Origin: a virus | Length of the DNA stretch: 27,781 bases | Reading direction: 5' to 3' (one strand) | Virus record (IMG/VR): IMGVR_UViG_3300008117_000400 | Location: 1 to 27,781 of that record | In this document: positions 1,043-27,781 of the stretch, piece by piece | How positions within the stretch are numbered: position 1 is the stretch's first letter | How the letters are laid out: every line of letters begins with the position of its first letter | Made by a program: the position numbers and the translations under genes | Notes under the pieces: model-generated | What the model was told of the DNA's origin: nothing | Databases searched by the model: none | What the model saw: the letters and a program-made list of their open reading frames with translations, nothing else

Positions 1043-2284
1043 TTATTCTTCATCATCGTTGTTATGAACGTTCCATTTGGATTTTAGAGCCTTTTTGACT
1101 TGATTTTCACCATCCATCATTTCATTCAAGATGCTCATACCCTCACGGCTATTTTCGCCATAAATTTCGATGTGACCACAACCAGCGTTCATTTTACTTG
1201 GGAATGTCAAACCATCTGGTCCGAAACGATTCTTAATTACGTGGAATCGTGCAGTATTTGCTTGTTTATCGTTAACTTTACGACTTAGACTCATAACAAA
1301 GTCAGCGGTCATAATCTTACGATAACTATCAGCAATGTTGTTAGCCTGAATAATATCTTCATCCATAGCAGCACGATTACTCTGTGAAGCACTCCAAATA
1401 GGAACTTGTAATTCACCAGCTACACCACGAAGTTCTTCATAAATACCACCAGCTTCAGGAAAGTACTTGATCTTCAACTTGCCAGGCACATCAGCAATCT
1501 TCTGCTTTACGATGTCTACGTTGTTACGAATGTTCTGGAAATCAATTCCAGTAAAACAAGCATCATAACGAAGACCCACATAGTTTTCATTCAATTCTAG
1601 AGTGAAGTGAACTACGTTCTTACCTTGTTTCATAGCTTCAGCTCCTAACTTAGATAGTACCCAACTCTTACCGCTACCTGCACAAGCTGTAATAATACCC
1701 AATTCACCAGCTGCTAATCCGCCGTCCATAATAGTATCAATTTCAGTCCAATTGGTCTTGACACAATTACGACTCATTACACTCATACGTTTTTCAACGT
1801 CTTCAGTATAATCGTGGCCGATATTACGTTCCATACCAGCTTTCATTGCGTGATCAACTACATTCTTGATCTTTTCATATTGACCAAGTGCCAATAGGTC
1901 TGCACTTTCAATAATAGCATTCTTTAGTTTCTGATTTTTGCAGAATTCCAAGAACTGTTCTTTGACAAACTTCAAATCATTGTCGCTTACCTTTTGGTAA
2001 ACTAACTTTAGATTGTCTACGATACTTCGTTTGAGAAGCTCATCATTTACTTCATCAACTTTAATTTTAAATACGGTTAAGGTTGGTAGATCTTTATACT
2101 CGTTAAAGTATTTAATACTTTCTTTTACAACCCACTTGTTTGCATCACTTTCAAAGAAATCTACTTCGATAATATCGTTAATACGTTCAATAAATGAACG
2201 ATCAGATATTAAGCACGAAATACACTTGATTTGGAAGTCACGACCGTATTTTGTTAATGAATCAATTGCTTTTTTGTTTTCCAT
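1043..2284 (-). CDS. gp41: Replicative DNA helicase, T4 gp41/DnaB type, lacking the Walker B segment
   Basis: 413 aa. In T4-like phages this hexameric helicase unwinds the fork with the primase. Seen: a helical N-terminal domain (about 1-150), Walker A TACAGSGKS at 199-207, then VVHFTLELNENYVGLRYD. After KYFPEAGG (residue 280) the sequence passes directly to IYEELRGVAGELQVPIWSASQSNR (281-304), which is the region that normally follows Walker B. The expected stretch of about 40-45 residues with hhhhD (the Mg-binding Asp) is absent, in frame; T4 gp41 is about 475 aa. The C-terminal part (ARFHVIKNRFGPDG, about 349-362) is intact. As read, ATP hydrolysis should be impaired. Either a real deletion or an assembly collapse is possible. 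The gene lies between the 5' nuclease and nrdA; no clear Shine-Dalgarno. Confidence 0.9.
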   Translation of the reverse strand: MENKKAIDSLTKYGRDFQIKCISCLISDRSFIERINDIIEVDFFESDANKWVVKESIKYFNEYKDLPTLTVFKIKVDEVNDELLKRSIVDNLKLVYQKVSDNDLKFVKEQFLEFCKNQKLKNAIIESADLLALGQYEKIKNVVDHAMKAGMERNIGHDYTEDVEKRMSVMSRNCVKTNWTEIDTIMDGGLAAGELGIITACAGSGKSWVLSKLGAEAMKQGKNVVHFTLELNENYVGLRYDACFTGIDFQNIRNNVDIVKQKIADVPGKLKIKYFPEAGGIYEELRGVAGELQVPIWSASQSNRAAMDEDIIQANNIADSYRKIMTADFVMSLSRKVNDKQANTARFHVIKNRFGPDGLTFPSKMNAGCGHIEIYGENSREGMSILNEMMDGENQVKKALKSKWNVHNNDDEE

Positions 2285-2300
2285 AAGATAACTCTACTAT

Positions 2301-2316
2301 ACCACTGAATTAAGTG
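2301..2316 (-). other. Small hairpin between 5' nuclease and helicase genes
   Basis: CCACT/AGTGG inverted repeat (5 bp, 6-nt loop) in the 60-base gap between the 5' nuclease stop and the helicase start. No T-run follows on the minus strand, so it is not a convincing terminator; it may be chance. Confidence 0.2.
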
Positions 2317-2344
2317 GCCTTCAACTTTTATTAACCGATATTTT

Positions 2345-3289
2345 TTATTCTACGAAACTATTTAATTTACCGAAACATTCATTGAGCCAAATGTGATAAT
2401 TGGGGATATTATTCCACATTTTGTCCTCTGTGATTAATTTAGAAAAGCTCATTTTATCAATTCTACGTACAGGAGATTTTATAATTTCTTCTATACGTAA
2501 CTGGGTAAATGATTGCACTTGCGTATCTTTCAACTGCATCAAACTATAATTACGTTCAAGTAATAACTTGTTGTCTAATACAGTCTGATATACTTTATAT
2601 TTACTCTTGTTATTCTCCGCGTAATTGTAAATCTCATTCAGATCATATTGACGTTCTTCTGATAAGAAAGGAAATGATTTTACTACACGTTTTAAACCTA
2701 CACCATCTAAACCAGGTATATTATCACTTACATCACCTTCCATAACTCTATACAAGATATAGTTGCTGCATGTAACACCATATTCATCCAAGATTTCTTT
2801 ACAACCAAAAATTCTCTTTTTGACAGGACTCCAAATTTTGACTTTATCGTTTGCCAATTGTAAAAAGTCTTTATCAGTGGACATAATTGTTACATTACTG
2901 TCCTTAAAAGTTTCTGTAGCTAAATAAGCAATTGTATCGTCTGCTTCTATTTGATCAATCGCCATTACAGTAACAGGCAATGTATCTAAATAATTTATAG
3001 TACGAATTAATTCTTTTTTAAAATTTACAGATTCTATTTCAGATGACGATAGTTCTTCGTAATTACGATTGAGTCTAATATCTGTCTTTCTACCATTTTT
3101 GTACGCTGGATAAATCTTTCTGCGTTTCTGACTACCACCTTTACCATCAAATACAATAATAACTCGGGTAGGAGAAAGTAATTTAATTGCATACCCAATG
3201 CTTTTCAAAAAACCAGCAATACCACCTGTATGTAATCCATCCTCATTGAGAGAAGGAATGGCCATAAAACTTCTAATGTAAGTATTCAC
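2345..3289 (-). CDS. 5'-3' exonuclease (RNase H/FEN, Pol I 5'-nuclease type), main body of an interrupted gene
   Basis: 314 codons from a GTG at 3289. The family removes RNA primers and flaps during lagging-strand synthesis. Seen: SFMAIPSLNEDGLHTGGIAGFL, VIIVFDGKGGSQKRRKIYPAYK (second metal-binding Asp region and helical arch), IEADDTIAYLA, IMSTDKDFLQL and GDVSDNIPGLDGVGLKR (helix-hairpin-helix). All match Pol I/T5-type 5' nucleases. The expected first motif hhhDGxN is missing from this frame; it is encoded just upstream in another frame (3289-3417) as LLVDGL followed by TAG. Removing five bases (TAGTG, 3287-3291) would give DGLNTYIRSF, which has the same spacing as T5 exonuclease DGTNLGFRF. 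As it stands the body could only be made by reinitiation at the overlapping UAGUG, by recoding, or not at all. Confidence 0.85.
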   Translation of the reverse strand: MNTYIRSFMAIPSLNEDGLHTGGIAGFLKSIGYAIKLLSPTRVIIVFDGKGGSQKRRKIYPAYKNGRKTDIRLNRNYEELSSSEIESVNFKKELIRTINYLDTLPVTVMAIDQIEADDTIAYLATETFKDSNVTIMSTDKDFLQLANDKVKIWSPVKKRIFGCKEILDEYGVTCSNYILYRVMEGDVSDNIPGLDGVGLKRVVKSFPFLSEERQYDLNEIYNYAENNKSKYKVYQTVLDNKLLLERNYSLMQLKDTQVQSFTQLRIEEIIKSPVRRIDKMSFSKLITEDKMWNNIPNYHIWLNECFGKLNSFVE

Positions 3290-3417
3290 TACAATCCGTC
3301 AACCAAAAGGACATCACTATTAAGTGATTTTTTAAGTCCTCCGGTGACGGAATCGCTTTCTATGTTTTGAAATAAAGAAAATAATTTCTTCATTTCTTTG
3401 TTGTCAAAGTTGCTCAT
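3289..3417 (-). CDS. N-terminal 42 codons of the 5' nuclease, ending in a stop at the first catalytic motif
   Basis: ATG at 3417 opens a 42-codon frame (MSNFDNKEMKKLF...) that ends ...NSDVLLVDGL then TAG. LLVDG is the canonical first beta strand and metal-binding Asp of 5' nucleases, which the main body (2345-3289) lacks, so this is its true amino terminus. Its start overlaps the last codons of the homing endonuclease gene (stop at 3404-3406), which suggests translational coupling. The stop TAG shares one base with the GTG that opens the main body (TAGTG), a typical termination-reinitiation arrangement. Too short to be an independent protein of known function. Confidence 0.75.
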   Translation of the reverse strand: MSNFDNKEMKKLFSLFQNIESDSVTGGLKKSLNSDVLLVDGL

Positions 3418-4336
3418 TTAATAGTTTTTTAATGTATATATTTTTGTCTTTACATTGTTCCCAGTCATGTTGCCATATAACTTTTATTATATACCCATTC
3501 GATTCAGCAATCAACATTTTATTTTTATCTTTTTCCCATATTTTAATAACTTCATCGGACGATGTAAAAAATCTAGGATCTCTGTGCCAATAAGTACCAT
3601 TAAATTCTATTAATAAATTTTTTTCTTTTACAAACACATCGTATGGCTTCCCCCCAACAACATATTCATCTTGAATTGAATATCCTTGTTCTTTTAACAA
3701 TCTAATTACTTCCTGCTGGCCTTTAGATTTAAAAATTGGTTTATGAATTCCACTTTTCCACTGATTTTTAGTAATTAACGATAATTTGTGTTTTGTTTCA
3801 ATAGTATGTCTAAAATTAGATCGTTTGGCTTTCTTTGGTTTTCTTAATTTTAACTTATGTTCTTCTGTTAATGGCTTTCCAAGTTGTGATTGCGACATTT
3901 TTTGTTTAGTGTCTTCACTGGGTTTATACCAGTCTCTACTTTTTACTCGTTTTATTTTACTCTCAATTGTTTGACACTTTGGTAAACAATGTTTAATCAT
4001 TAAATCCCTACATCTAGATTTAGCGGACTGATTATTTTTATAATATTTTTTAATACCAACAGACATTTTTTGTCTTCTTTCCGAAGAAATAAAATAACTA
4101 TCTTTGGATCTTTTTTGATGAGCAACTTTAGACGTTCTAACAGCACTTATTTTTTTCAAATAAGTTTCACCATATTTATCATATAAATATTTTTTTATTT
4201 TTGATCCGATTTTGCTACCAATTTTATTTAGTTTAAATAAAGAAGCAAATCCACATATCGATTCATCTTTTATAAAGATTTGATATAATCGTTCAGATTG
4301 ATCTTCAAAAAAAAGTTTTTCCGCATTGTTATCCAT
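3404..4336 (-). CDS. Free-standing homing endonuclease, EDxHD/Vsr-like with NUMOD3 repeats
   Basis: 310 aa. Such enzymes cut a site in a neighbouring gene of a related genome and spread by repair. Seen: a Lys/Arg-rich middle with NUMOD3-like DNA-binding helices (about 88-195; SEDTKQKMSQSQLGKPLTEE, then TIETKHKLSLITKNQW), and a C-terminal nuclease domain (about 205-305) with KPYDVFV, LIEFNGTYWHRDPR, KDKNKMLIAESNGY and VIWQHDWE, the pattern of the Vsr-related EDxHD family (I-Bth0305I type). It sits between recA/uvsX and the 5' nuclease gene and its 3' end overlaps the latter's start. By eye it is more AT-rich than its neighbours, consistent with separate origin. The start codon lies inside the loop of a 14-bp hairpin, suggesting tight control of expression. 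Confidence 0.88.
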   Translation of the reverse strand: MDNNAEKLFFEDQSERLYQIFIKDESICGFASLFKLNKIGSKIGSKIKKYLYDKYGETYLKKISAVRTSKVAHQKRSKDSYFISSERRQKMSVGIKKYYKNNQSAKSRCRDLMIKHCLPKCQTIESKIKRVKSRDWYKPSEDTKQKMSQSQLGKPLTEEHKLKLRKPKKAKRSNFRHTIETKHKLSLITKNQWKSGIHKPIFKSKGQQEVIRLLKEQGYSIQDEYVVGGKPYDVFVKEKNLLIEFNGTYWHRDPRFFTSSDEVIKIWEKDKNKMLIAESNGYIIKVIWQHDWEQCKDKNIYIKKLLNEQL

Positions 4337-4366
4337 ACTAATAAATAGTAGGCAATGCGGAAAAAC
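4307..4366 (-). terminator. 14-bp hairpin with T8 spanning the homing endonuclease start codon
   Basis: Perfect inverted repeat: arms 4353-4366 and 4315-4328 (GTTTTTCCGCATTG and its complement), loop of 24 nt (4329-4352), then T8 on the minus strand (4314-4307). It begins 16 bases after the uvsX stop. The loop holds the TATTTATT box and the ATG (4334-4336) of the endonuclease; the 3' arm is its codons 3-8. In RNA it should act as an intrinsic terminator for uvsX transcripts and also fold back the translation start of the endonuclease. Confidence 0.75.
4340..4350 (-). promoter_or_regulatory. TACTATTTATT box ahead of the homing endonuclease
   Basis: Minus-strand TACTATTTATT ends 3 nt before the ATG at 4336. 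The same box precedes the genes at 23924 and 22144. It may be a phage promoter -10 element giving a leaderless mRNA, or a non-SD translation signal. Function inferred only from recurrence and spacing. Confidence 0.4.
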
Positions 4367-4382
4367 ATCCTATCAATGTGTT

Positions 4383-5522
4383 TTATTCCTCGTTGCCTGC
4401 AGTTTCTTCTGTTTCAACTACAGCATCGTCAATGATTTGACTATTAGGATCTTTGTATTTCATAATTACAGCGTCACAAATCTTCAAGTAAATTTCTTCA
4501 CTCAATTCCTTGTCACTTTGCATAATGTTTACAAAGTCTTTGGATTGGAACTTCCATTCACTGCCATCGGTCTTCTTATATGTATAATAAGCACCACCTT
4601 GCTTCACCAAGTTATTTTCCTTCAATACCTTGATCCAAGAACCATAATCTGCAATTCCAGAATCAAAATAAATATCGAAACTAGCTTGACGTTGTGGTGG
4701 ACCCATACGATTCTTCACAACAACTGCTTTGCATTCGTTTCCAATAATCTCTTCACCCTTTTTGAGTTTACCAGTATTATTCAAACGAACACGAACACTA
4801 CAGTGATAAGCAAGTGCCTTACCACCACTTACTACATACTTGTCACCAAATGCCATAGCATTTAGATTCTGACGCAATTGGTTGGTGAATACAGTAAGAA
4901 CCTTCTGACGACCAATCATAGTGGTAATCTTACGCATTGCTTTACTGATAATAATTGATTTACCCGTAGCATAACCATCTTTACCGTGGTCACTTTCAAG
5001 TTCTACCTTGGTTGATGCCGCTGCTACAGAATCAACGATAATTGTTAGAATACGATCTTTGTTGCTCTTACGAACAATAGCAATCATTCGTTCCATCTGA
5101 GCAAAAATATCTTCAACGGTTTCACATTGAACATATAGTAACTTGGATAGATCTACACCCAAACTTCTCCAGAATTCAGGAGCAGCTGCATTTTCAGTAT
5201 CAATTACTACTGCAACTCCACCTTTCTTCTGAGTGTCGGCAACAACGTGTGCGGATAGCAAACTTTTACCAGTACCTTCGAGGCCGTTAAATTCTACCAT
5301 TTTACCAACTGGTAATCCGCCGTGAGGACGATTACTAATCGCCAAATCCAAAATAGAAGAACCAGTGCTAATCCAATCCGTGATTTCAGATGGATTGTCT
5401 TGTTCATCTAGAAAATGAGCAATCTTTCCACCGTCTTTATTTGCTTTATTTAATTCATTTGCCAACATTTCGATAAGCTCGTCACGTTGACCCGTATCTT
5501 TACTAACACTTTTTTTTGCCAT
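4383..5522 (-). CDS. uvsX: RecA/UvsX-like recombinase
   Basis: 379 aa from ATG at 5522 (MAKKSVSKDTG). The frame is open upstream to 5564, but that extension runs through a terminator-like hairpin and is rejected. Seen: Walker A GLEGTGKS at about 80-87, Walker B TIIVDS at about 160-166, and the L2/DNA-binding stretch VFTNQLRQNLNAMAFGD followed by SGGKALAYHCSVRVRL, closer to bacterial RecA than to T4 UvsX. It ends in an acidic tail (DDAVVETEETAGNEE). The family forms ATP-dependent filaments on ssDNA for strand exchange, which in T4-like phages also starts late replication. It follows the SSB gene, its natural partner. No Shine-Dalgarno is visible. Its transcript would end in the hairpin/T8 at the endonuclease start. 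Confidence 0.95.
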   Translation of the reverse strand: MAKKSVSKDTGQRDELIEMLANELNKANKDGGKIAHFLDEQDNPSEITDWISTGSSILDLAISNRPHGGLPVGKMVEFNGLEGTGKSLLSAHVVADTQKKGGVAVVIDTENAAAPEFWRSLGVDLSKLLYVQCETVEDIFAQMERMIAIVRKSNKDRILTIIVDSVAAASTKVELESDHGKDGYATGKSIIISKAMRKITTMIGRQKVLTVFTNQLRQNLNAMAFGDKYVVSGGKALAYHCSVRVRLNNTGKLKKGEEIIGNECKAVVVKNRMGPPQRQASFDIYFDSGIADYGSWIKVLKENNLVKQGGAYYTYKKTDGSEWKFQSKDFVNIMQSDKELSEEIYLKICDAVIMKYKDPNSQIIDDAVVETEETAGNEE

Positions 5523-5538
5523 AACGTATATAACTAGA

Positions 5539-5580
5539 AAGCCGGTGGGGTATAAAAACTCCACCGGCTTATTTTTATTT
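5539..5580 (+). terminator. GC-rich hairpin filling the SSB-uvsX gap
   Basis: Perfect 10-bp stem AAGCCGGTGG/CCACCGGCTT (5539-5548 and 5561-5570) with a 12-nt loop. The T-rich tail (ATTTTTATTT) follows on the plus strand, so it is a textbook terminator for plus-strand transcripts, although all genes here are on the minus strand. On the minus strand it is followed only by TCTAGTTAT. It may end antisense transcription, or attenuate or stabilise the SSB-uvsX transcript. Confidence 0.65.
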
Positions 5581-5581
5581 T

Positions 5582-5782
5582 TTAGGAGTTAAACAAGTCA
5601 TCAAATGCTTGTTCTACACTATCCTTACCCTTTGCTTTAGCAGCAGTTGGTGAAGCTGGTGCTGTAGCTACGGTAGCTTTAGCTGGTGTTGCAAATGGAA
5701 CATCATCATCATCAACAGAAGCAGCTGTTTCAGTTGGAACAGTTGACTCGGCCGATGTTTCCGGATTTAACCACTTATCCAT
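5582..5782 (-). CDS. C-terminal acidic tail of gp32-type SSB, in a shifted frame
   Basis: This frame continues upstream to about 5830 and reads FLDLFPELSYDELKEVMDKW, then an Asp/Ala/Pro/Thr-rich linker and DSVEQAFDDLFNS. A short helical segment, flexible linker and acidic terminal peptide are typical of the gp32/SSB C-terminus that contacts other replication proteins. It belongs to the SSB gene at 5767-6357; one base is missing near 5825-5835 to join them (...KPNVSVF + LDLFPELSY...). The ATG at 5782 is an internal Met of the joined protein, not a likely independent start. Confidence 0.8.
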   Translation of the reverse strand: MDKWLNPETSAESTVPTETAASVDDDDVPFATPAKATVATAPASPTAAKAKGKDSVEQAFDDLFNS

Positions 5783-6357
5783 AACTTCCTTGAGTTCATC
5801 ATAAGAAAGTTCTGGGAATAGATCCAGAAAACACTTACATTTGGCTTAACTCGGATACTGGTTTCTGGGAAACTAGCTCCACCTTCAGCCGTCTTGAATT
5901 CTACAACAATATCACGACCATTGGTTAGATCAGTAATATCACCGAAGTCAGGATCACTGATGATCGATAGAAGTTCTTGATAAACTTGTTTACCAAATCC
6001 CCAGAACTTAACTCCTTCACCTTCTTCACCACGAACGATAACTGGTACGAAAGTACGCATCTTTGGTTCCATCTTACGACCCATCTGCCAATCTTCCTTT
6101 GAACCAGTCTTCTTCAGACGGTTAGCAAATTCAACGATTGGATCTGGACGACCAAAACTATCAGGAGATAGATATGTCTTGTTGTTGATGTTGTAATGAA
6201 ACTTTAGTTCGATGAATGGATTCTCCGGTACATACTTGTACGGAACAATACGAACTACCTGTTTTCCAGGCTTTGGTTTCCAAATCAAGTTAGATTTTTG
6301 ATTTGTGTTTGAGAGAGAGCTCAAACGGCTCTTTAACTTACTTAGATCTAATGCCAT
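5767..6357 (-). CDS. gp32: Single-stranded DNA-binding protein, gp32 type (N-terminal and core part; frameshifted)
   Basis: 196 codons from ATG at 6357 (MALDLSKLKSRLSS), of which about the last 20 (after KPNVSVF) are out-of-frame. gp32 coats ssDNA and organises replication and recombination proteins. Seen: a basic N-terminus with LKSRLSSL (place of the cooperativity motif in gp32), then an OB-type core: WKPKPGKQVVRIVPYKYVPENPFIEL, RTFVPVIVRGEEGEGVKFWGFGKQVYQELLSII and GRDIVVEFK. The core has no Cys, so the zinc site of T4 gp32 is absent. It is directly upstream of uvsX, the usual functional partner. The true C-terminus is in the next frame (5582-5782). No Shine-Dalgarno; the leader is AT-rich with repeated TTTAATG-like units. 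Confidence 0.85.
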   Translation of the reverse strand: MALDLSKLKSRLSSLSNTNQKSNLIWKPKPGKQVVRIVPYKYVPENPFIELKFHYNINNKTYLSPDSFGRPDPIVEFANRLKKTGSKEDWQMGRKMEPKMRTFVPVIVRGEEGEGVKFWGFGKQVYQELLSIISDPDFGDITDLTNGRDIVVEFKTAEGGASFPETSIRVKPNVSVFWIYSQNFLMMNSRKLWISG

Positions 6358-9223: not shown

Positions 9224-10522
9224 TTACAATTGGACTAATTTCAAATCATTGTAATTATTTCCAGTGTAGGTTTTTACCTTAAATCGTTTGTTTTTGATAA
9301 TATCAACCAAATCAATTAGTTCTTGTTTATTCGTATCATTGTGTACATCAAATACAATTGAGTCATACACATATAGTATAGGCACGATTCTTTTATCACT
9401 AACAAACTTAATGCACTTACTTAAACTATCAATACCATATTCAGTTTCAGCAGCTTGAATAATATAAGAAAACAATTTGTTTTTGTTGGGGTCAACAATG
9501 TGTTTATTTGTAATCTTACGTTTATAGATAGGAGTTGTTATGTATCCATTCTTTTCAAATTTTTGCCAGTACTTGTCCTTTAATTCATTTACCTTCGCAA
9601 AATATGGAATATCACAATACTGTTGGGAAATTTGTCCATATAGATTAACCATCGTCAGTTTCTTCGATTTAACTATATCATCTGGTGTTACGATTTCAAT
9701 ATCAAAATAGTGTTTCGCTAAATGTTCATATATGGTCTCCTTTTCAGGAACTTTATAATCAATCAAATTAGCCACAATATAAGGATGAAACCCAGTGAAA
9801 TCCACCATCATTAAGTGACCAGATTCCCCATATCTAGACACAAAACTAGCTCTAGATCCATCATCTTTTTTAAGCGCTACATAATTGATATTATCATATG
9901 CATTGCTTGGTCTACCCGTTGGATTATAAATGTTATAATTTGTATATATGAATTTGTTGTACGTTTTGCTTTTAAAGTATTTTGAAAATACATCCGTATC
10001 AACTTTTAATCCGTTTTTCTCCACCTCAAACAAAGTATCGGATATAACATTATTGAAAAACTTGAAACAATAATTGTCTGTGTCTTTGTCACCCAAAGAC
10101 TCAATTTGCTTTATTTCAACGTCAAATATTCGTTGGTGTATAACATAAGGTAATATCATATTGAAGTTATTGATATTACGATAACTATATTTTAGGAAGT
10201 TTTCAGTCAAACACTCCACTTCGTCGAGTATTTCATTGTTATCAATGAAACCAAACAAATTAACATCTATCAAATTACAATTTAACCAGTACTTGTACGT
10301 CTTCTTGTTGTTGACATATACACTTACATTTTGTGACTCAATATCAGATTTAAACTTTTCAAAACTACAATCTATAGGTAAATCTGTATGCGCAAAATTC
10401 AAATACTGTTTTGTACCATCTTTAAAATTATAAATGAAAGCAGCAATAATATCATTACAAGCATTATGATAATTATTGTGTTTTGTAACTAATTTTAAAT
10501 AAATTTTAGATGAATACTCCAC
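9224..10522 (-). CDS. Divergent family-A DNA polymerase-like protein (432 aa)
   Basis: Starts at GTG 10522, directly after an in-frame stop. Pol I-type palm and fingers motifs are visible in order: PTGRPSNAYDNINYV (201-215; compare TGRLSS...NLQNIP), motif A MMVDFTGFHPYIVANL with Asp241, motif B KSKKLTMVNLYG with Lys287 and Tyr295 in the O-helix positions, and motif C LYVYDSIVFDV with Asp387. Both catalytic Asp residues are kept. The O-helix Arg is absent, the Phe is Met291, motif A Glu is His, and HDE is YDS. The first 190 residues show no recognisable 3'-5' exonuclease motifs, and the protein is much shorter than Pol I. It may be the polymerase half of a split enzyme, a repair polymerase or a diverged paralogue. 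Oddly, it sits among structural genes. Confidence 0.78.
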   Translation of the reverse strand: MEYSSKIYLKLVTKHNNYHNACNDIIAAFIYNFKDGTKQYLNFAHTDLPIDCSFEKFKSDIESQNVSVYVNNKKTYKYWLNCNLIDVNLFGFIDNNEILDEVECLTENFLKYSYRNINNFNMILPYVIHQRIFDVEIKQIESLGDKDTDNYCFKFFNNVISDTLFEVEKNGLKVDTDVFSKYFKSKTYNKFIYTNYNIYNPTGRPSNAYDNINYVALKKDDGSRASFVSRYGESGHLMMVDFTGFHPYIVANLIDYKVPEKETIYEHLAKHYFDIEIVTPDDIVKSKKLTMVNLYGQISQQYCDIPYFAKVNELKDKYWQKFEKNGYITTPIYKRKITNKHIVDPNKNKLFSYIIQAAETEYGIDSLSKCIKFVSDKRIVPILYVYDSIVFDVHNDTNKQELIDLVDIIKNKRFKVKTYTGNNYNDLKLVQL

Positions 10523-24078: not shown

Positions 24079-24729
24079 TTAATTTGAGAATAATACTCTA
24101 ACATATTGACAATCATATAAAACATTATCTGATCCTGGAGTTGATATTCTACAACTACCTGCAAGTTGCGCATTAGGTCTTCTTGGTACTGCAATAAACA
24201 TATTATTTATAGATTGACCAGGATTTTCATATTCATATGTTGCGGTACCAGCTACCACATAATTTGCATTTGCAAAAGCTGTGGTAAAATTAATTGTATA
24301 ATCTCCTGTACCATTATCAGTTATGGAACTTACATTGTTTGAAGCATTTGGTGATATACCAGATGTACCACTAGTGCCACCCCCATTAAAATGTACCCAA
24401 GCTTTAATACTAGATATGCCACTACTACCGCTAGTGCCTGGACTACCATTTGCGCCACTGGTGCCACTGGTGCCACTGGTGCCACTGGTGCCTGGACTAC
24501 CATTTGCGCCATTACTACCGCTAGTGCCCGGACTACCATTTGCGCCACTGGTGCCACTGGTGCCTGGACTACCATTTGCGCCACTGGTACCACTGGTACC
24601 GCTCGCGCCACTTGTTGATTTATGTACTACGCCGGTAGTGTTATCTACTGTTAAAAAGTAACCAGTTGCGTTACTGGTCAGACCTTCCAGTTTGAGTGGT
24701 AAATTTGTAGAAGATCCACTTATATGCAA
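24079..24729 (-). CDS. Fibre protein, C-terminal segment: collagen-like stalk and tip
   Basis: 216 codons from the first ATG, but the frame is open upstream to about 24760 and begins GIGTTSPTNKLHISGSS, showing it is the 3' part of the long fibre gene. Seen: a trimeric collagen-like stalk of G-x-y triplets (GTSGTSGANGSP repeats), then an adhesin tip with DNGTGDYTINFTTAFANANY and a C-terminus with two Cys. Phage collagen-like stalks form trimers and display the receptor-binding tip. It ends in TAA at 24079, before a 154-base intergenic region. Joined to 24753-26192 by restoring one base near 24769. Confidence 0.85.
   Translation of the reverse strand: MHISGSSTNLPLKLEGLTSNATGYFLTVDNTTGVVHKSTSGASGTSGTSGANGSPGTSGTSGANGSPGTSGSNGANGSPGTSGTSGTSGTSGANGSPGTSGSSGISSIKAWVHFNGGGTSGTSGISPNASNNVSSITDNGTGDYTINFTTAFANANYVVAGTATYEYENPGQSINNMFIAVPRRPNAQLAGSCRISTPGSDNVLYDCQYVRVLFSN
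24418..24612 (-). repeat. Collagen-like tandem repeat DNA
   Basis: 9-bp units (GGCGCCACT/AGTGGCACC-like on the two strands) and longer 36-bp-scale blocks encode GTSG and GANGSPGTSG repeats. Such arrays recombine readily and vary in number between relatives. Confidence 0.9.
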
Positions 24730-24752
24730 TTTATTAGTAGGACTTGTTGTAC

Positions 24753-26192
24753 CTATACCGCAGAAGTTAAAAATGCAAGATAACCTTTTGTTGTCTGTAA
24801 AGTTCCTTCTTTGCTTACACCAACATAAATGCTTGCTTTTACTGAATCAACGTCAAATCCAGGATAATATACTTTAAAATCAATTGCTCTAGATCCTGAT
24901 CCATAAGCAGCAGCGTCAATTGGTTTACTAAGTGTTAAAATAGTTGATGGACTTGTTGTGCCTATACCAACGTTGCCATCTGATTTAATATAAAATAAAT
25001 CTGAAAATGAATTACTAGCAACAGGTGATCTAGCAATTACAAAATTATCTTGTCCATTACCCCAACCCATTCTTAACTTCCACGATGATCTTGCTGAGGA
25101 ATCTTGAGTACCAGCATCATTTATATTTGTAGTAATTGCAAGCGCATCTATTTGATCTCGTTCACGTATACGCCAACTTGTGTTTTCCATACCACCAAGA
25201 AGCTGTCTAACAGTTCCAGTAGCACCAAGAGATATACCTGCGTTGCTAGGAGAAGTTGTAGTGCCTATTAATAAATCTCCTGTACTAGTTATACGCATTT
25301 TCTCAGTATTATTTATACTGAATATGGTTGGTATAGGAGATGCGGTTCCAATTACTAAAGAAGTTGGATGAGGTGAACCAAGAGTAGTAGTTCCAATATA
25401 TGCTTGACCAGCAGCAGTAACTCCATAGTTGTTACCCGTAGCAGAACCACCGAACATACCCATAATTAACACCGCATCAGATGCAGCTTTTATCTGAAAT
25501 TGAGATACGCTGGTTGTGGTACTTCCATCAAGACGCATTATTGTTTGTCCAGATCCACTTATATGCAATTTACTAGCAGGACTTGTTGTACCTATACCAA
25601 CATTACCATTGCTACTAATACGCATTCTTTCGCCAAGTGATGTAGCGTTATTCGTAAAAAATCTTAACGCACCTCTGTCACCGCCGAAACTACTATCATC
25701 TATTACATCAATTTTTGCAGCAAGACCTCCCGGCATTGAACTGTCTGAAGATAACCAATCAATTGTTCCATAAACGCCAGCATTAACATTAGTGTTACTA
25801 TCTTGTAAACGAATTGTTGGAGATGAATCGTAAACATTTAATTTAGTTGTGGGACTACTTGTTCCTATACCAACATTACCATCACTGGTAATACGCATTC
25901 TTTCACTAGCATTTGTAGTTACTGAAATGAATCCAGCACCACCATTATTAAAGTAAAAATCATTTCCACTTTTTTGTAGATATGAATTTGCTGTAGCATT
26001 TCTTAATGATATCAATGCATCTGTACTACCATACACTTCAATATCACCACGGGCTGCATTTGAATAAACAAATGAAGTTGTGCCTATACCAACATTACCA
26101 CCAAAATATTTATTGAAACTGGTTTCTAAACTATCTTCTGAAATGCTTGTAGCAATTGTAGTAATTGATCCACTATCAAAAGTAGAATACAT
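24753..26192 (-). CDS. Fibre protein, third frame segment (GNVGIGTTSP repeats)
   Basis: 479 codons from the first ATG; the frame is open upstream to about 26280 and there reads GNLYIELNGDDGYLQDSNW, so it is a continuation of the fibre, not a separate gene. About six repeats of the form MRITSDGNVGIGTTSPxxKL alternate with variable beta-rich segments, an architecture seen in long tail fibres and surface adhesins. The frame ends in TAG at 24753; one extra T in the T5 run at 24769-24773 would carry it into the collagen segment (YLAFFNFCGIGTTSP). Confidence 0.85.
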   Translation of the reverse strand: MYSTFDSGSITTIATSISEDSLETSFNKYFGGNVGIGTTSFVYSNAARGDIEVYGSTDALISLRNATANSYLQKSGNDFYFNNGGAGFISVTTNASERMRITSDGNVGIGTSSPTTKLNVYDSSPTIRLQDSNTNVNAGVYGTIDWLSSDSSMPGGLAAKIDVIDDSSFGGDRGALRFFTNNATSLGERMRISSNGNVGIGTTSPASKLHISGSGQTIMRLDGSTTTSVSQFQIKAASDAVLIMGMFGGSATGNNYGVTAAGQAYIGTTTLGSPHPTSLVIGTASPIPTIFSINNTEKMRITSTGDLLIGTTTSPSNAGISLGATGTVRQLLGGMENTSWRIRERDQIDALAITTNINDAGTQDSSARSSWKLRMGWGNGQDNFVIARSPVASNSFSDLFYIKSDGNVGIGTTSPSTILTLSKPIDAAAYGSGSRAIDFKVYYPGFDVDSVKASIYVGVSKEGTLQTTKGYLAFLTSAV

Positions 26193-26257
26193 ACTATTAC
26201 CTAATATATCAGTTTGTATAGTCCAATTACTATCTTGTAAATAACCATCATCACCAT

Positions 26258-27178
26258 TTAATTCGATATAAAGGTTTCCTCTAAATAATTTACACCAGAA
26301 CTATTGTTTGCCATGGCTATGGCTTTTACCTTCACTATAAAATCAGCACCAGTATTAATTTTTGTAAATGGAACGATTATTCTTATAGGATTATTTGTAG
26401 TTATACTATTTACTTTACTATAAACAATCGTACTATCTAACGTTACTAATCCCGCAACATGTAACTTAGCAGCAGGAGCGGTTGTACCTATACCAACATT
26501 ACCTAAATAATTAACAGATAAAGCTTCATAAGTTGGTGACGCTATAGTTCCCTGCGTTGTTACTCTAAGAGGTAAACTTCCATTTGACGTTTCATTAGAA
26601 TGTATTCTGACTAAATTATTTGTTCTCGCTGCGTTAGTGTGGGCAGTTGCGAAGACATTTAATCCAAATGTATCTGAGTAGTCCGTTGCTAAAGAATATA
26701 TAAAATTACCATTTGTACTTCCGCTTCCACCAATCATTTTTACAGACTGAGAATCATTACCATAAGATACATGAAGTTTAGCTATTGGACTTGTTGTACC
26801 TATACCAACATTACCATCGCTAGCAATACGCATTTTTTCAGACCCATTAACATAAAAAGTAAGAGGAATAGCGCTTGTTGAAAAAATAAATGATTCGGAT
26901 GCATAACTGCCAATTCGCACAGTGTTTGTAGTATTATCTCCTATTAGAACATTTCCTCTAACATCTAGTTTATAAGCAGGATTTGTTGTACCTATACCTA
27001 CATTACCTGCTCCTGTTACAACCAATGAAGTTGCGGATGTACCGCCCACTTCAAAGTAATCATTTACATCAACAACTTTCAAATCCCAGTTTCTTACGCC
27101 GTTGTCTGTTAATCTAATGTAAGCATCACCACTAGTAGATATTATACGCATTGCCGTGCTAGTACCATATAACTCCAA
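26258..27178 (-). CDS. Fibre protein, second frame segment (GNVGIGTTSP repeats)
   Basis: 306 codons from the first ATG, open upstream to about 27205 (RGTTSPSQLLELYG). Repeats: GNVGIGTTNPAYKLDVRG, GNVGIGTTSPIAKLHVS and GNVGIGTTAPAAKLHVAG with MRI-x-S/D-G spacers. It ends in TAA at 26258 after VNYLEETFIS; one added T at 26283-26285 would give VNYFRGNLYIELNGDD and continue into the next segment. Confidence 0.85.
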   Translation of the reverse strand: MELYGTSTAMRIISTSGDAYIRLTDNGVRNWDLKVVDVNDYFEVGGTSATSLVVTGAGNVGIGTTNPAYKLDVRGNVLIGDNTTNTVRIGSYASESFIFSTSAIPLTFYVNGSEKMRIASDGNVGIGTTSPIAKLHVSYGNDSQSVKMIGGSGSTNGNFIYSLATDYSDTFGLNVFATAHTNAARTNNLVRIHSNETSNGSLPLRVTTQGTIASPTYEALSVNYLGNVGIGTTAPAAKLHVAGLVTLDSTIVYSKVNSITTNNPIRIIVPFTKINTGADFIVKVKAIAMANNSSGVNYLEETFISN

Positions 27179-27780
27179 TAGTTGAGATGGACTGGTTGTA
27201 CCTCTACTTCAATTGTAAATGGATGAGTGGTATCATATCTTGCACCAATGACTGCAAAAATAGTACTAGGCGCATCTTGTGTTTGAAGCCTTAATTGATT
27301 TGCATTTGATTGAACTGCTAATGGTGATGATGGACTTGTGGTACCAATACCTAAATTACCATTGGCATCAAGACGCATTTTTTCACTATTATTAGGCGCA
27401 AACCTTAAAGGCAAACTACCAATTGTACCTAATTCAGCATATGATGATACGCCATATAAATACGCTCTTTGTGAACCACCAGAACCTATATTTAATGAAA
27501 CATCTGTAGTTCCATTAACAGAAAGCACGGTTCTATTAGCAGCTGTTCCAAACGGGGCTGTTGTACCAATACCTACATTACCACCGTTAAAATAACTTGT
27601 ACCATTTGCTTGAATATCTACTTTGGTAGTAGTATCACTTTTCATTAATAAACGAGCATCATTGGAAGCATTCGTTGAAAGTATAAATGTATTTTTACCA
27701 GCAGTATTTGGAGAAACATATACATCTCCATTTACATCTAATTTAGCACCAGGACTTGTTGTACCTATACCAACATTACC
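27142..27780 (-). CDS. Fibre protein, first visible segment (5' end outside the window)
   Basis: The frame is open to the right edge and starts there in GNVGIGTTSPGAKLDVNGDV, so the true start lies beyond 27781; the ATG at 27645 is internal. Repeats GNVGIGTTAP and GNLGIGTTSPSSPLAV follow. The last in-frame fibre residues are near HPFTIEV at about 27210; after that the frame reads off-frame residues to a TGA at 27142 while the fibre continues in the next frame as RGTTSPSQLLELYG. Confidence 0.85.
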   Translation of the reverse strand, partial: GNVGIGTTSPGAKLDVNGDVYVSPNTAGKNTFILSTNASNDARLLMKSDTTTKVDIQANGTSYFNGGNVGIGTTAPFGTAANRTVLSVNGTTDVSLNIGSGGSQRAYLYGVSSYAELGTIGSLPLRFAPNNSEKMRLDANGNLGIGTTSPSSPLAVQSNANQLRLQTQDAPSTIFAVIGARYDTTHPFTIEVEVQPVHLNYWSYMVLARQCV

Positions 27781-27781
27781 A

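What the first reader, a model, noticed from the sequence alone, without database searches (positions are those of the whole stretch)
1435..1460. gp41-type helicase missing the Walker B segment, in frame
Seen: KYFPEAGG is followed directly by IYEELRGVAGELQVPIWSASQ, with all other helicase motifs intact and the frame kept. Established: in gp41/DnaB a segment of about 40-45 residues with the hydrophobic-D Walker B lies between these. An essential replicative ATPase without its catalytic Asp should be dead. The GGTGGT at the junction (1445-1450) could have been the recombination or mis-assembly point. gp41 genes of related marine phages are also known split-intein hosts, so variation here deserves attention.
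Basis: partly seen in the sequence, partly recalled or inferred. Interest (0 to 1): 0.62.

Follow-up and report, generated by a model that had tools for sequence, protein, structure and literature searches.

The report
Assembly gap in phage helicase gene
The apparent loss of the Walker B segment from this phage's replicative helicase is almost certainly an assembly error: a virus identical at every one of 27,029 comparable bases carries the full gene, and this contig lacks four other short pieces in the same clean-cut way.

Summary
The 413-aa gp41/DnaB-type helicase (1043-2284, minus strand) lacks 47 residues (141 nt, junction 1457|1458), including Walker B (MIIVDYADIL). All 80 relatives retrieved keep the segment, and no other viral contig has the junction. 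An independent contig (IMGVR_UViG_3300031787_000289, "G001") has no substitution against the window over 27,029 aligned bases and carries the intact 460-aa gene. The window differs from it by five clean losses of 141, 55, 58, 112 and 97 nt, with 0-1 nt of microhomology, plus one divergent block of about 200 nt. Four of the five are out of frame; they break gp32 (single-stranded DNA-binding protein) and a tail-fibre gene. A second contig (L095) has the same 141 nt, letter for letter, in place. Five kill-type deletions without one substitution is not how phage genomes diverge. It is how a contig looks when pieces of one genome are butted together across unfilled gaps. The helicase gap kept the frame by chance (about 1 in 3). 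Verdict: assembly artefact, no biological novelty. A real, very recent defective variant cannot be excluded without reads, but is unlikely.

The parts
1043..2284 (-). gp41/DnaB-type replicative helicase ORF, 413 aa as assembled (460 aa in the otherwise identical G001)
1457..1458 (.). Junction J1: 141 nt (47 codons with Walker B) missing; in frame; no microhomology
5621..5829 (.). Short block (uvsX-gp32 side, gp32 C-terminus) that departs from G001 from 5621 and from L095 from 5660: a strain variant or chimeric piece
5829..5830 (.). Junction J2: 55 nt missing relative to both G001 and L095; blunt; breaks the reading frame of gp32
24759..24760 (.). Junction J3: 58 nt missing in a tail-fibre-like gene; blunt; out of frame
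26280..26281 (.). Junction J4: 112 nt missing in the same gene; 1 nt of microhomology; out of frame
27203..27204 (.). Junction J5: 97 nt missing in the same gene; blunt; out of frame

Best explanation
The window is an imperfect assembly of a known kind of uncultured T4-like phage. Exact pieces of one genome were joined end to end across short unfilled gaps (for example scaffold gaps of 55-141 nt whose filler was lost, or false joins around strain variants). One of these gaps fell in the gp41-type helicase gene and removed 47 codons with Walker B. The frame survived by chance. The real phage most likely encodes a normal 460-aa helicase. Shown: identical flanks, intact gene in independent contigs, five clean gaps. 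Inferred: the exact step of the assembly pipeline that made them.
For: 27,029 aligned bases with 0 substitutions against G001, interrupted by five missing segments. Junctions are blunt: microhomology 0, 0, 0, 1 and 0 nt for J1-J5. Four of five are out of frame and break gp32 and the tail fibre, which is one long ORF in G001. The same 141 nt is present, letter for letter, in L095, whose flanks are identical to the window's. 80 of 80 related helicases keep Walker B and none is short. A degenerate search for KYFPEAGGIYEE found nothing in IMG/VR.
Against: No raw reads are available. Neither the window nor 736 kb of related loci contains any N, so stripping of scaffold Ns is only an inference. No other locus in the set showed the same kind of gap against a near-identical neighbour, although few such pairs could be compared.
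Confidence: 0.94

Rival explanations
1. A real, very recent deletion variant: a defective genome in the population that lacks Walker B and is complemented by wild-type phage in mixed infection.
For: The frame is kept at J1; a contig with zero substitutions to an intact relative could be a recent mutant.
Against: It needs five independent deletions without one substitution in 27 kb, four of them out of frame, in gp32 and the tail fibre as well. There is almost no microhomology at the junctions. No second contig carries the junction.
Confidence: 0.05
2. A functional helicase lineage that works without Walker B, or gets the segment from elsewhere (split gene, trans-splicing, intein).
For: Only the retained frame and the other intact motifs.
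Against: 80 of 80 relatives keep the segment and none has an insertion. No 12-mer of the segment occurs elsewhere in the window and no 14-mer elsewhere in G001. A virus with identical flanks has the normal gene. The Pfam DnaB_C match falls from 80.7 to 48.8 bits.
Confidence: 0.01

Closest known systems
T4 gp41 / DnaB-family replicative helicase (PF03796; PDB 8dtp, 8due)
   Same: The intact counterpart in G001 (460 aa) matches the T4-type helicase chains over residues 22-404, Walker B aligned to IIVDY; the window's protein is the same outside the gap.
   Different: As assembled, 47 residues with Walker B are missing; judged an assembly error.
IMGVR_UViG_3300031787_000289 (G001/L002)
   Same: 27,029 of 27,029 aligned bases identical outside one block of about 200 nt.
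   Different: Has the 141, 55, 58, 112 and 97 nt segments that the window lacks.

Membership tests
gp41/DnaB replicative helicase | DnaB_C / RecA-like core with Walker A | tested here: met
   PF03796 48.8 bits (cut-off 27); ACAGSGKS present
gp41/DnaB replicative helicase | Walker B (hydrophobic run followed by D) | tested here: not met
   Absent in the window as assembled; present in the otherwise identical G001 and in 80 of 80 relatives
Assembly artefact | An independent near-identical sequence carries the missing segment | tested here: met
   G001 and L095
Assembly artefact | Reads contradict the junction | not testable with these tools
   Raw reads are not available
Intein or split-gene host | Insertion or split at this site in relatives | tested here: not met
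   All full-length relatives are single ORFs of about 1,374-1,380 nt

The most novel reading that the evidence does not exclude
A real sub-population of defective phage genomes with several short clean deletions, kept alive by co-infecting intact phage.
Probability: 0.04. Interest if true: 0.4.

Novelty: not a real feature. Interest (0 to 1): 0.04.

Why it matters
Mainly as a caution: short clean gaps in metagenomic virus contigs can look like in-frame losses of catalytic motifs. Comparison with a near-identical contig settles such cases quickly. If it were real, it would be an essential replicative ATPase without its catalytic acidic motif.

Tried and rejected
(1) Deletion between short repeats: there is no microhomology at the junction, and the longest word shared within 30 nt of the two breakpoints is 7 nt, out of register. 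(2) Fragment moved elsewhere: not in the window or in G001. (3) A clade with the short form: none in 80 relatives, none by degenerate pattern in IMG/VR, none by exact pattern in the GTDB contigs. (4) Intein or intron: no insertion in relatives. (5) General stripping of Ns in the collection: not established; no other locus showed such a gap in the pairs that could be compared. (6) Literature searches brought nothing that was used.

Full report
Observation. The minus-strand ORF at 1043-2284 encodes a 413-aa gp41/DnaB-type helicase in which KYFP is followed directly by EAGGIYEEL. Aligned with relatives it lacks 141 nt, i.e. 47 codons including MIIVDYADIL, the Walker B strand. In the intact counterpart this segment aligns with IIVDY of the T4-type helicase chains 8dtp/8due (that these are T4 gp41 is my own knowledge). 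The Pfam DnaB_C match covers profile positions 2-86 in the window and 2-240 in the intact protein.

Relatives. A scan of IMG/VR returned 80 related loci. Every one has the Walker B motif and none has the short form. A degenerate DNA pattern for KYFPEAGGIYEE found no viral contig, and the exact junction found no bacterial or archaeal contig. The tools warn that records very near the window may be left out of such scans.

The decisive comparison. The closest contig, IMGVR_UViG_3300031787_000289 (40,843 bp; G001), aligns with the window over nearly the window's whole length. Leaving out one block of about 200 nt at 5621-5829, 27,029 bases align with zero substitutions. Against that identity the window lacks 141 nt at 1457|1458, 58 nt at 24759|24760, 112 nt at 26280|26281 and 97 nt at 27203|27204 (the figure of 111 printed leaves out one base shared by both flanks). 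At 5829|5830, at the edge of the divergent block, it lacks 55 nt relative to both G001 and a third contig, L095. The junctions J1-J5 show 0, 0, 0, 1 and 0 nt of microhomology. L095 is identical to the window from 1355 to 5659 apart from J1, and has the same 141 nt, letter for letter, in place.

Reading. In phage genomes substitutions normally outnumber deletions (own knowledge), so five deletions with no substitution in 27 kb is not credible as divergence. Four of the five (55, 58, 112, 97) are out of frame. They truncate the single-stranded DNA-binding protein gp32 and break up a tail-fibre-like gene that is one ORF of more than 1,100 codons in G001. The helicase gap is the only one divisible by three, no more than chance would give. 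All are 55-141 nt long, about the size of short-read assembly gaps. The simplest account is that exact pieces of one genome were butted together across unfilled gaps. Whether this was a scaffold whose Ns were removed, or false joins around strain variants (the divergent gp32 block next to J2 suggests mixed strains), cannot be decided here. The window and 736 kb of related loci contain no N at all.

Rivals. A real defective variant would need all five lesions in one genome and would depend on complementation; it is not excluded without reads but is unlikely. A functional helicase without Walker B, a split gene or an intein is contradicted by the intact gene in the otherwise identical G001 and by the absence of the segment anywhere else in the window or in G001.

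Verdict. Not a real feature of the phage; interest low.

Noticed in passing
3404-4336 (-): Free-standing homing-endonuclease-like ORF (310 aa; PHROG 559 HNH endonuclease and 3339 homing endonuclease; weak Pfam MTES_1575) between the 5'-3' exonuclease and uvsX/recA genes; relatives such as L029, L030 and L047 show no match between 3287 and 4382.
   Followed up: partly
9224-10522 (-): 432-aa ORF with no Pfam, PHROG or PDB match at useful E-values; by eye it has stretches resembling family A DNA polymerase motifs (DFTGFHPYIVANLI, KLTMVNLYGQI, YVYDSIVFDV). Unverified.
   Followed up: partly
24079-27781 (-): Tail-fibre-like gene with many GNVGIGTTSP repeats and a collagen-like GTSGTSGANGSPGTSG stretch; broken into several ORFs in the window by J3-J5, one ORF in G001.
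   Followed up: partly
5621-5829: gp32 C-terminal coding region differs among otherwise identical contigs (window, G001, L095), which points to local strain variation or a chimeric piece.
   Followed up: partly
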